From NCBI GenBank assembly GCA_018268675.1, contig JAFDWB010000058.1:1-54343 (forward strand): a stretch of DNA of 54,343 bases, read 5' to 3'. Within the stretch, counting starts at the first letter, position 1; each line of letters begins with the position of its first letter. The notes below the pieces were generated by a model, which did not search any database, was not told the origin of the DNA, and saw only the letters and a list, made by a program, of their open reading frames with translations. The DNA comes from Actinomycetota bacterium (GTDB lineage: Bacteria > Actinomycetota > Thermoleophilia > Solirubrobacterales > 70-9). The position numbers and the translations under genes were made by a program. This document shows positions 51,122 to 53,425 of this stretch, in pieces.

Positions 51122-51874
51122 CTAGTCGCCGGCGAGGCGGCGCAGGTCGCGGACCAGCAGCAGGTGCTTCAGGTGGCTGACGGTCGCGGCGAGGCTTTCG
51201 AGGCTCTGCAGCGCCTCTTTGCGGCGCTCCGGGTTGCGCGAGCGCAGCGACGGTCCCAGCAGCGCTTCGAGCAGTTGCGCCTCGCGGTCGGCGGAGGAAC
51301 GGAAGATGCGCAGATTGCGCGCGCCGACACCGACTCGTGACAGTTCGTTGGCGGCGCGGACGATCTCGCGGTCGGTCTCGTCGTAGACGGTCCGCCCTTC
51401 GCGTTTCTCCGGCTGGACGATCCCGAACCCCTCCAGCTCGGACACCAGCTCCTCCCGCGCGCCGGTCTCCTCGAGGATCTCCTCGAGGCTCAGGTAGGTA
51501 CGCGAGGTGTCGACGAGGATCGCCCGCCGCACCGCCCCCGGTGTCGGCTTGCGCTCCCCGCCGCCGTCCCCCAGCACCAGGTCGTTGCCGGCGGCGAGCT
51601 CCTGGCGGATCACCCGCAGCGGCAGGAACTCGTCGCGCTGGAGGCGGAGGATCGTGCGCAGGCGCTCGACGTCGGACTGACTGTAGAGGCGGTAGCCGCC
51701 CGAGGTGCGCCGCGGGCTGAGCAGCTTCTGGTCCTCCAGGTAGCGGATCTTCGAGATCGAGACGTCGTCGAACTCGCTCTGCAGGATCTTGCAGACGGCG
51801 CCGATCGTCAGCGCCTTGCGGGGACGGGAAGCGGAATCCGGCGAGCGCCGGGCGGAATCCGGGACGGCGGCCAT
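51122..51874 (-). CDS. MerR-family regulator (FtsR/Rv1828-like)
   Basis: 250-residue MerR protein. The winged helix is TIGAVCKILQSEFDDVSISK and IRYLEDQKLLSPRRTSGGYR, followed by YSQSDVERLRTILRLQRDEFLPL. A further wing-like segment (LSLEEILEETGAREELV, then KREGRTVYDETDREIVRAA) resembles the second domain of mycobacterial Rv1828/corynebacterial FtsR, which activates ftsZ. Its ATG shares one base with the stop of the FHA gene (TGATG), the same pairing as Rv1827-Rv1828. The regulatory target here is inferred. Confidence 0.88.
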   Translation of the reverse strand: MAAVPDSARRSPDSASRPRKALTIGAVCKILQSEFDDVSISKIRYLEDQKLLSPRRTSGGYRLYSQSDVERLRTILRLQRDEFLPLRVIRQELAAGNDLVLGDGGGERKPTPGAVRRAILVDTSRTYLSLEEILEETGAREELVSELEGFGIVQPEKREGRTVYDETDREIVRAANELSRVGVGARNLRIFRSSADREAQLLEALLGPSLRSRNPERRKEALQSLESLAATVSHLKHLLLVRDLRRLAGD

Positions 51875-52350
51875 CAGCGCTCCAGGTAGCTGAGCTTGTA
51901 CTTGCCGATCTGGATCTCGTCGCCGTCGGCGAGCCGGTGGGACTCGATCCGGCGCCGGTTCACGTAGGTGCCGTTCAGGGAGCCGAGGTCGTCGATGTAG
52001 AGGCCGTCGCGGCGGCGCACCAGCAGCGCGTGGTTGCGGGACACGGTGACATCGTCGAGGAAGACGCCCGCGTCGGGGCTGCGGCCGATCGAGGTGCGGT
52101 CTTCGTCGATCGAGAAGCTCTCGCCGGCGCGCCCGCCGCCCGCCCGGATGACCAGCGCCGCGCCTGATTCCTCGACCACCTCGTCGATGTCCACCGGCTG
52201 CATGTCGCCGGTCTCGTCCACCCGGTAGGTCATCGTCGTCGGCTCCTCTTTGCTCTCCGCCGGGCCGCCCAGGTAGGCGCCGCATTTCTGGCAGTAGTTG
52301 GCGCCCTCGGGGTTGGCGTAACCGCACTCGGGGCAGTGGACGGCCGACAT
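51874..52350 (-). CDS. FHA-domain protein with amino-terminal zinc ribbon (GarA-like)
   Basis: 158-residue protein. The zinc ribbon CPECGYANPEGANYCQKCG (residues 6-23) is followed by a threonine-containing segment EEPTTMTYRV that resembles the kinase-phosphorylated ETT motif of GarA/OdhI. A FHA domain follows with the phosphothreonine-binding IGRSPDAGVFLDDVTVSRNH and LNGTYVNRRRI. GarA proteins control 2-oxoglutarate enzymes under Ser/Thr-kinase control. The zinc ribbon is not part of mycobacterial GarA. No kinase is in the window. Confidence 0.9.
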   Translation of the reverse strand: MSAVHCPECGYANPEGANYCQKCGAYLGGPAESKEEPTTMTYRVDETGDMQPVDIDEVVEESGAALVIRAGGGRAGESFSIDEDRTSIGRSPDAGVFLDDVTVSRNHALLVRRRDGLYIDDLGSLNGTYVNRRRIESHRLADGDEIQIGKYKLSYLER

Positions 52351-52366: not shown

Positions 52367-52627
52367 CTACGCCGCCGGATCCTCGCCCTGGGCCTTGCCC
52401 GCGAGGATGTTGGTCAGCTGCTCGACATCGTCACCGGAGATCAGCGAATCGCCGCGCTCCCGTTTCTGGCGCAGGCGGTTGACGAGCTCGGCACGGAGGA
52501 TGTCGATTTTCCCGTGCAGGACGCGCCGCTTGTAGGAGATCTCGTTCTCCTCCGCCGTCAGGTTGTCGATCAGGTCCTTCAGCTCCTTGTCGCTGAGCGA
52601 ACCGAGATCGGGAAAGGTGTCCTCCAT
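52367..52627 (-). CDS. RsiG-like c-di-GMP-responsive anti-sigma candidate
   Basis: 86-residue helical protein, mostly an antiparallel coiled coil. Residues 27-42 fit the RsiG c-di-GMP motif E-x3-S-x2-R-x3-Q-x3-D as Glu27, Ser31, Arg34, His38, Asp42, with histidine replacing glutamine. One motif copy matches the single-motif, dimeric RsiG described from early-branching actinobacteria; Streptomyces RsiG has two. In those proteins c-di-GMP lets RsiG bind a WhiG-type sigma factor. No sigma gene is in the window. AAGGAG precedes the ATG. Confidence 0.8.
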   Translation of the reverse strand: MEDTFPDLGSLSDKELKDLIDNLTAEENEISYKRRVLHGKIDILRAELVNRLRQKRERGDSLISGDDVEQLTNILAGKAQGEDPAA

Positions 52628-52683
52628 CTTGCTCCTTGTAGAGAGTTGGGACCGGCCCCACCGCCAGCTTGCCGCGGAAGCGC

Positions 52684-52724
52684 AGTATAGATCGGCCGAC
52701 CAAAAGGTTCAACCGCAGGTTGAA
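52684..52724 (-). promoter_or_regulatory. Promoter and operator of the RsiG-like gene
   Basis: On the minus strand TTGAAC (52707-52712), a 17-nt spacer and TATACT (52684-52689) form one of the best promoters in the window, giving a leader of about 50 nt. The perfect palindrome TTCAACC-GCA-GGTTGAA (52708-52724) covers the -35, a typical repressor position. The regulator is unknown. The remaining gap to pgsA (52725-52774) shows nothing further. Confidence 0.7.
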
Positions 52725-52774
52725 GGTTTTCCGAGACCGCGGGCCGCCCGCAGGCACGTGCGGCACGGCAACCC

Positions 52775-53425
52775 TCACCCTCCGCCGAGCGTTGCCGACT
52801 TGGCGGCGCGGACGGCACGGAGGCCGTCGCGGGCGTAGAGGAAGGTGGCGGTGAGCGCCAGCGCGAGGCCGAGGTACAGCAGCGCGGTCGGGACCCAGCC
52901 GCTGACCAGCATCGCGAAGAAGAGCGCCGCCATGATCGGGAACACCGCCATCCGGCCCGGCCAGTTGATAGCGATGTCGACCCCGTGGCGCAGGCCGTAC
53001 TGGGCGAGCCCGAGCATCGTCAGCTCGCGCAGCGCGAGGACGACCAGCGCCCAGCGCGGCAGCAGTTCGAAGCTCCAGCAGACGACCGCGCCCGAAAGCA
53101 CGGTCAGTCGGTCGACGAAGGGGTCGAGGAGCGCCCCCATGCGGCTGTACTGGCCGGTCACCCGGGCGAGGAAGCCGTCGAGATAGTCGCTCGCCGCGAT
53201 CAGCCAGAAGACGACCGCGGCGGCGACCGAGCGGCCGTCCTCGGAGGAGTAGGCGAGGACGAGGAAGACCGGGATCCCGGCCAGCCGCACGTAGCCGACG
53301 AGGTTCGGCAGCGTCCACGGATGAAGCGGCTCCCCGGTCCGCGTCTGGCGCGGTTTGGGCCCGCTGCGGTCGAGTCCGAAGAGGCGGCGGAGCCTGCCGC
53401 GCCCGAACGGATCGACATCGGTCAT
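52775..53425 (-). CDS. pgsA: CDP-alcohol phosphatidyltransferase (PgsA-like)
   Basis: 216-residue membrane enzyme with about six helices. The family motif D-x2-DG-x2-AR-x8-G-x3-D-x3-D is complete at DYLDGFLARVTGQYSRMG followed by ALLDPFVDR (about residues 80-107). It likely makes phosphatidylglycerophosphate from CDP-diacylglycerol; phosphatidylinositol-phosphate or cardiolipin synthesis are alternatives. A Lys/Arg-rich amino-terminal tail precedes the first helix. Confidence 0.88.
   Translation of the reverse strand: MTDVDPFGRGRLRRLFGLDRSGPKPRQTRTGEPLHPWTLPNLVGYVRLAGIPVFLVLAYSSEDGRSVAAAVVFWLIAASDYLDGFLARVTGQYSRMGALLDPFVDRLTVLSGAVVCWSFELLPRWALVVLALRELTMLGLAQYGLRHGVDIAINWPGRMAVFPIMAALFFAMLVSGWVPTALLYLGLALALTATFLYARDGLRAVRAAKSATLGGG

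What the first reader, a model, noticed from the sequence alone, without database searches (positions are those of the whole stretch)
52367..52724. Single-motif RsiG-like protein with histidine variant and palindromic operator
The 86-residue protein fits the RsiG c-di-GMP motif at four of five residues, with His38 for Gln. It is encoded beside FHA/MerR growth-control genes. Its promoter (TTGAAC-N17-TATACT) is covered by a perfect 7+3+7 palindrome. This hints at a c-di-GMP/anti-sigma switch in a non-sporulating lineage with separate transcriptional control.
Basis: partly seen in the sequence, partly recalled or inferred. Interest (0 to 1): 0.6.

Follow-up and report, generated by a model that had tools for sequence, protein, structure and literature searches.

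The report
Single-motif RsiG under an FtsR operator
This soil bacterium carries a small protein of a known family that uses the signal molecule c-di-GMP to hold back a gene-switching factor, and the palindrome in front of its gene looks like a binding site for FtsR, a cell-division regulator encoded in the same operon, which would tie surface-attachment genes to growth control.

Summary
The 86-aa ORF (52367-52627, minus) is a single-motif RsiG (Pfam PF22802, 71.5 bits, cut-off 27; motif E27-S31-R34-H38-D42). The family, its single-motif form and the histidine variant are all published: Conexibacter woesei RsiG, with His, binds c-di-GMP and its WhiG (PMC8325347).

New here: the palindrome is most likely not private to rsiG. 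It aligns in register with the published 25-bp FtsR site. A matrix built only from the two literature FtsR sites finds it in the window (p = 0.001), in 76 of 80 relatives (reversed control 3 of 80), before ftsZ in 17 of 17, and before garA-ftsR in genomes without rsiG there. FtsR is gene 3 of the tight operon rsiG-garA-ftsR, whose order held in all 79 testable relatives. I infer FtsR autoregulation.

A WhiG-type promoter precedes the type IV pilin gene here and in one relative, so the switch probably controls pili, as in Rubrobacter.

Side finding: twin-motif RsiGs occur inside Thermoleophilia at this slot, suggesting repeated internal duplications. No wet-lab data were available.

The parts
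52367..52627 (-). rsiG: 86-aa single-motif RsiG, E27-x3-S31-x2-R34-x3-H38-x3-D42
   Evidence: Pfam PF22802 71.5 bits, cut-off 27; PDB RsiG chains 7lq2/7lq3/7lq4 at E about 3e-9, 6pfj at 8.6e-11; motif invariant in 80 relatives
52704..52728 (-). 25-bp FtsR-type operator AACCTTCAACCTGCGGTTGAACCTT (perfect core palindrome 52708-52724)
   Evidence: in register with the published C. glutamicum FtsR site; literature-only matrix p = 0.001, best hit exactly here
52707..52712 (-). -35 box TTGAAC, overlapping one arm of the operator
   Evidence: sequence
52684..52689 (-). -10 box TATACT, 17-nt spacer
   Evidence: sequence; conserved TATACT/TATAAT-like box in most relatives
52632..52637 (-). ribosome-binding site AAGGAG
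   Evidence: sequence
51874..52350 (-). garA/odhI: FHA protein with N-terminal zinc ribbon, 16 nt after rsiG
   Evidence: Pfam FHA 76.6 bits; best NCBIfam match OdhI, below its cut-off
51122..51874 (-). ftsR: MerR-type regulator, start overlaps the garA stop by 1 nt (TGATG)
   Evidence: NCBIfam NF050798 FtsR 214.9 bits, cut-off 150
52775..53425 (-). CDP-alcohol phosphatidyltransferase (pgsA-type), conserved upstream neighbour
   Evidence: Pfam PF01066; present upstream of rsiG in 80 of 80 relatives

Best explanation
The gene encodes a homodimeric single-motif RsiG. Two copies form an antiparallel coiled coil that binds a c-di-GMP dimer and, so armed, holds the sigma factor WhiG away from RNA polymerase; when c-di-GMP falls, WhiG is released and transcribes type IV pilus and probably other genes. 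The gene leads an operon rsiG-garA-ftsR read from one vegetative promoter. The palindrome over its -35 box is an FtsR operator, so FtsR (activator of ftsZ in Corynebacterium) regulates its own operon and the dose of RsiG with it; in this species, where the operator arm itself is a good -35 box, the likeliest sign is repression. Family membership, WhiG presence, operon order and operator match are shown; dimerisation, c-di-GMP binding, WhiG binding and FtsR binding are inferred from characterised relatives; the sign of regulation is a guess.
For: Family: PF22802 71.5 bits; RsiG crystal-structure chains matched. Partner: one WhiG, NF004935 349.9 bits over cut-off 343, closest to Streptomyces WhiG (E 4e-84), with K40-G44-R45 in the place of the published c-di-GMP contacts. 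c-di-GMP enzymes: eight GGDEF matches; of seven read, two are GGDEF-EAL and one GGDEF-HD. His variant functional in Conexibacter. Operator: literature-only matrix hits the window (p 0.001), 76/80 rsiG promoters vs 3/80 reversed, 17/17 ftsZ promoters vs 1/11 for the parA-linked second ftsZ, 15/30 garA promoters across the phylum; also upstream of garA in a Thermoleophilia genome without rsiG (L258). Operon order conserved in 79/79 testable loci. Output: TAAA-N15-GCCGATGA 87 nt before the pilin start in a pilB-pilT-pilC-pilA-pilM cluster, kept with a changed spacer in a relative (L197).
Against: No experiment. FtsR ChAP-seq in C. glutamicum did not list its own operon among nine peaks, so autoregulation need not be general; half of the phylum-wide garA promoters gave no hit. 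The classical ftsZ of this genome is cut by a contig end, so its promoter could not be read. WhiG promoter hits with <=2 mismatches are near background (47 vs 34 control); the pilin promoter was seen in only one relative of those checked. The predicted model is a single chain; dimer and ligand modelling were not possible.
Confidence: 0.78

Rival explanations
1. The protein is RsiG as above, but the palindrome is bound by another regulator (for example a TetR/GntR/MerR-type protein encoded elsewhere) that controls rsiG for its own reasons.
For: Palindromic operators over -35 boxes are common (general knowledge); FtsR binding was not tested; in the window's clade the outer arms (AACC...CCTT) differ from the Corynebacterium site (AACC...GGTA).
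Against: Same 25-bp length, centre and half-sites as the known FtsR site; same motif before ftsZ in relatives and before garA-ftsR without rsiG; FtsR sits in the operon.
Confidence: 0.15
2. The protein is a degenerate or repurposed RsiG that no longer senses c-di-GMP because of the histidine.
For: The single-motif Rubrobacter protein that was crystallised has glutamine here.
Against: Conexibacter RsiG with His binds c-di-GMP and gains affinity with WhiG; His and the other four residues are invariant in 80 relatives (a set chosen by similarity).
Confidence: 0.04
3. The operon couples the three gene products themselves: RsiG, GarA and FtsR interact or share a signal, so that c-di-GMP feeds into GarA or FtsR rather than, or besides, WhiG.
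For: Order rsiG-garA-ftsR is fixed in all 79 testable relatives.
Against: No sequence evidence of contact; WhiG is present and single-motif RsiGs bind WhiG (PMC8325347); garA-ftsR occurs without rsiG (L258).
Confidence: 0.1

Closest known systems
(RsiG)2-(c-di-GMP)2-WhiG switch of Rubrobacter radiotolerans and Conexibacter woesei (Schumacher et al. 2021, PMC8325347; PDB 7lq2-7lq4)
   Same: Single motif, small protein, WhiG in the genome, His variant as in C. woesei, class of unicellular species, type IV pilus cluster with a WhiG-type promoter.
   Different: The paper's main text does not mention the garA-ftsR operon or its operator; the pilus link was made only for Rubrobacter.
Twin-motif RsiG of Streptomyces venezuelae (PDB 6pfj)
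   Same: Same helix and motif; same sigma partner.
   Different: Here one motif per chain, no second helix or loop; no sporulation role expected.
FtsR/Rv1828 regulon of Corynebacterium and Mycobacterium (PMC6683498)
   Same: MerR-type FtsR next to an FHA GarA/OdhI-like gene; 25-bp inverted-repeat site, also before ftsZ in relatives.
   Different: The site here lies over the -35 of the regulator's own operon, and the operon starts with rsiG.

Membership tests
RsiG (PF22802) | Match over the curated family cut-off | tested here: met
   71.5 bits vs 27
RsiG (PF22802) | E(X)3S(X)2R(X)3[Q/H](X)3D motif | tested here: met
   E27 S31 R34 H38 D42; Q or H allowed
RsiG (PF22802) | Cognate WhiG sigma factor in the genome | tested here: met
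   L092, NF004935 349.9 bits over 343
Single-motif homodimeric RsiG | Only one motif helix per chain | tested here: met
   One motif in 86 aa; model has one long helix 13-57 and a short C-terminal helix
Single-motif homodimeric RsiG | Antiparallel homodimer binding a c-di-GMP dimer and WhiG | not testable with these tools
   No dimer or ligand modelling; fold search of the single helix was uninformative
FtsR operator | 25-bp inverted repeat like AACCCTAAAGTAAAGGTTGAGGGTA | tested here: met
   Literature-only matrix, p = 0.001, exact position; outer arm differs
FtsR operator | FtsR binds it | not testable with these tools
   Needs EMSA/ChIP
WhiG regulon | TAAA-N15-GCCGATAA promoters before pilus genes | tested here: inconclusive
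   One 1-mismatch site before the pilin gene, kept in one relative; background of weaker hits is high

The most novel reading that the evidence does not exclude
Across Thermoleophilia a c-di-GMP-armed anti-sigma factor is built into the autoregulated operon of the division regulator FtsR, so that cell-division/growth state sets the RsiG dose and thereby the c-di-GMP threshold for WhiG-driven type IV pili; and in several of these lineages the single-motif RsiG has been duplicated in place into twin-motif proteins, independently of the Streptomyces type.
Probability: 0.5. Interest if true: 0.65.

Novelty: new member of a known kind. Interest (0 to 1): 0.48.

Why it matters
It places a c-di-GMP switch under what looks like the division regulator FtsR in a whole class of poorly studied soil bacteria, giving a testable link between the cell cycle and surface attachment. 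The site also offers a simple rule for finding FtsR targets across the phylum. The twin-motif proteins found inside Thermoleophilia challenge the published picture of single-motif forms only in this class and let the evolution of the fused anti-sigma factor be followed in close relatives.

Tried and rejected
A WhiG-type promoter for rsiG itself: GCCGAT occurs near the -10 but no TAAA lies at the right distance, so rejected by reading. The 1-mismatch palindrome copy at C89:965 lies inside a long ORF and was not pursued. FtsR site before this genome's own ftsZ: the classical copy is cut by the start of contig C16, and the other copy is parA-linked and lacks the site. Foldseek with the single-helix model found nothing meaningful. 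WhiG-promoter hits before a GGDEF-EAL gene (C78:260) and a MerR gene (C74) have too many mismatches or too little support to claim. Structure prediction of the twin-motif proteins was not attempted, because those loci are not of the kinds the tool lists as allowed.

Full report
WHAT IS THERE. The minus-strand ORF 52367-52627 encodes 86 residues (MEDTFPDLGSLSDKELKDLIDNLTAEENEISYKRRVLHGKIDILRAELVNRLRQ...), with AAGGAG 4 nt before its ATG. Pfam names it RsiG-like (PF22802, 71.5 bits, cut-off 27). By sequence alone it finds the crystal structures of Rubrobacter RsiG (7lq2, 7lq3, 7lq4, E about 3e-9) and Streptomyces RsiG (6pfj, 8.6e-11). The motif is E27-S31-R34-H38-D42.

IS THE HISTIDINE UNUSUAL. 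No. Schumacher et al. 2021 (PMC8325347) describe single-motif RsiGs in two Rubrobacter and three Thermoleophilia species, state that His often replaces Gln and can make the same stacking contact, and measured the His-bearing Conexibacter woesei protein: Kd 25 uM for c-di-GMP alone, 1.7 uM with WhiG. All 80 nearest relatives in GTDB genomes have E, S, R, H and D at these positions. That set was fetched by similarity, so it is biased towards such sequences, and one more distant family has Gln (L267). The relatives are Solirubrobacterales/Thermoleophilia, and 122 of 150 sampled genomes of the class have the family.

PARTNERS IN THE GENOME. The 4.2 Mb assembly has one RsiG and one sigma factor over the FliA/WhiG cut-off, which also exceeds the WhiG equivalog cut-off (349.9 vs 343). 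Its nearest solved relative is Streptomyces WhiG. K40, G44 and R45 stand where the paper places the c-di-GMP contacts K53, G57 and R58 of Rubrobacter WhiG. There are eight GGDEF matches; of seven read, two are GGDEF-EAL and one GGDEF-HD.

THE PALINDROME IS PROBABLY AN FtsR OPERATOR. Downstream of rsiG, after 16 nt, lies a GarA/OdhI-like FHA gene, and overlapping its stop by 1 nt a MerR-type gene that exceeds the FtsR equivalog cut-off (214.9 vs 150). The order pgsA-rsiG-garA-ftsR holds in all 79 relatives where it could be read. FtsR of Corynebacterium activates ftsZ through a 25-bp inverted repeat, AACCCTAAAGTAAAGGTTGAGGGTA; the Mycobacterium ftsZ site is similar. The window's site, AACCTTCAACCTGCGGTTGAACCTT (52704-52728), has the same length and centre. 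In relatives the site takes the form ACCCTCAAGCTCAGCTTGACCCT or similar.

To avoid circularity I built a matrix from the two literature sites only and compared each promoter with 200 dinucleotide shuffles, 1000 for the window. Window: p = 0.001, best hit exactly at the palindrome. rsiG promoters: 76 of 80 at p < 0.05, against 3 of 80 when the same sequences are read backwards. Promoters of the classical ftsZ in these genomes: 17 of 17. Second, parA-linked ftsZ as a negative control: 1 of 11. Promoters of garA-ftsR in 30 genomes drawn from the phylum: 15 of 30, with sites such as AACCCTAAAGTTTCGCTATAGGGTC. A Thermoleophilia genome without RsiG (G105) still has the site upstream of garA (L258). 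So the site goes with garA-ftsR, and rsiG has come under it. A caution: FtsR ChAP-seq in C. glutamicum did not report its own operon.

HOW IT MAY ACT THERE. In 46 relatives the operator arm itself supplies the -35 box (mean 4.1 of 6 matches to TTGACA), 15-19 nt from the -10. In 27 the site sits 1-9 nt from the -10 and no good -35 exists (mean 2.0 of 6). The two main classes differ by about one helical turn. The window belongs to the first class, where a bound protein would block polymerase, so repression is my guess; the second class resembles the M. tuberculosis ftsZ arrangement, where the site lies between -35 and -10. The sign is not shown.

WHAT THE SWITCH CONTROLS. A search for flagellar-type promoters (TAAA-N15-GCCGATAA, as used in the paper) gives many weak hits, little above control (47 vs 34). 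One of five 1-mismatch hits lies 87 nt before the ATG of a type IV pilin gene, within a pilus cluster (PilB, PilT, PilC, pilin, PilM). In relative L197 both boxes are kept before the pilin gene while the spacer has changed. Another 1-mismatch hit overlaps the start of a short FlgM-like gene (23.2 bits, just under the cut-off of 25) and is also kept in a relative (L215). This fits the published Rubrobacter result of pilus control and extends it, weakly, to Thermoleophilia.

SIDE FINDING. The class-wide search showed proteins with two RsiG matches in one frame. Reading the DNA shows twin-motif RsiGs in the same slot next to garA and ftsR in at least three Thermoleophilia families. In f46, which belongs to the window's own order, both halves keep the whole motif, are 63-70% identical to each other, and 67-75% identical to the window protein; the Streptomyces halves reach only 50% and 33%. 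In L250 the second half even keeps GGGAG and an ATG. The paper reports only single-motif forms in this class. The tree of 54 columns leaves most deep forks open, so separate duplications are suggested by similarity and place, not proven.

MODEL. AlphaFold gives a helix 13-57, confident over most of its length, and a less confident short helix 65-75 (mean pLDDT 80), compatible with RsiG; the fold search was uninformative, and no dimer could be modelled.

VERDICT. A true, ordinary member of a characterised family. The new parts are the likely FtsR operator and fixed operon, and the twin-motif relatives. My literature searches found no report of either, but cover only openly licensed papers.

Noticed in passing
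L249:1005-1538 (+), L250:1148-1678 (-), L248, L251, L253, L254, L255: Twin-motif RsiGs inside Thermoleophilia at the pgsA-rsiG-garA-ftsR slot; in f46 both halves keep the full motif and resemble the local single-motif form, and in L250 the second half keeps a ribosome-binding site and ATG. Suggests independent internal duplications.
   Followed up: partly
L158-L169 versus L140-L157: Seventeen of 18 Thermoleophilia genomes checked have two FtsZ proteins; the second often has an N-terminal extension, in the window's genome follows a ParA-like gene, and lacks the FtsR-type site.
   Followed up: partly
G000:C71:39232-39350 (L111, L216); relative L215: A roughly 61-aa FlgM-like gene directly behind a 1-mismatch WhiG-type promoter, kept in one relative: WhiG may have a second anti-sigma factor.
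   Followed up: partly
L218-L247, about 580-730 nt upstream of the FtsR core: FtsR-type sites upstream of garA-ftsR in about half of the actinobacterial genomes sampled, suggesting wider FtsR autoregulation.
   Followed up: partly
rsiG promoters of L012-L091: Operator-to--10 distance falls in two classes about one helical turn apart (near 17 and near 5-8 nt), the shorter class lacking a good -35 box.
   Followed up: partly
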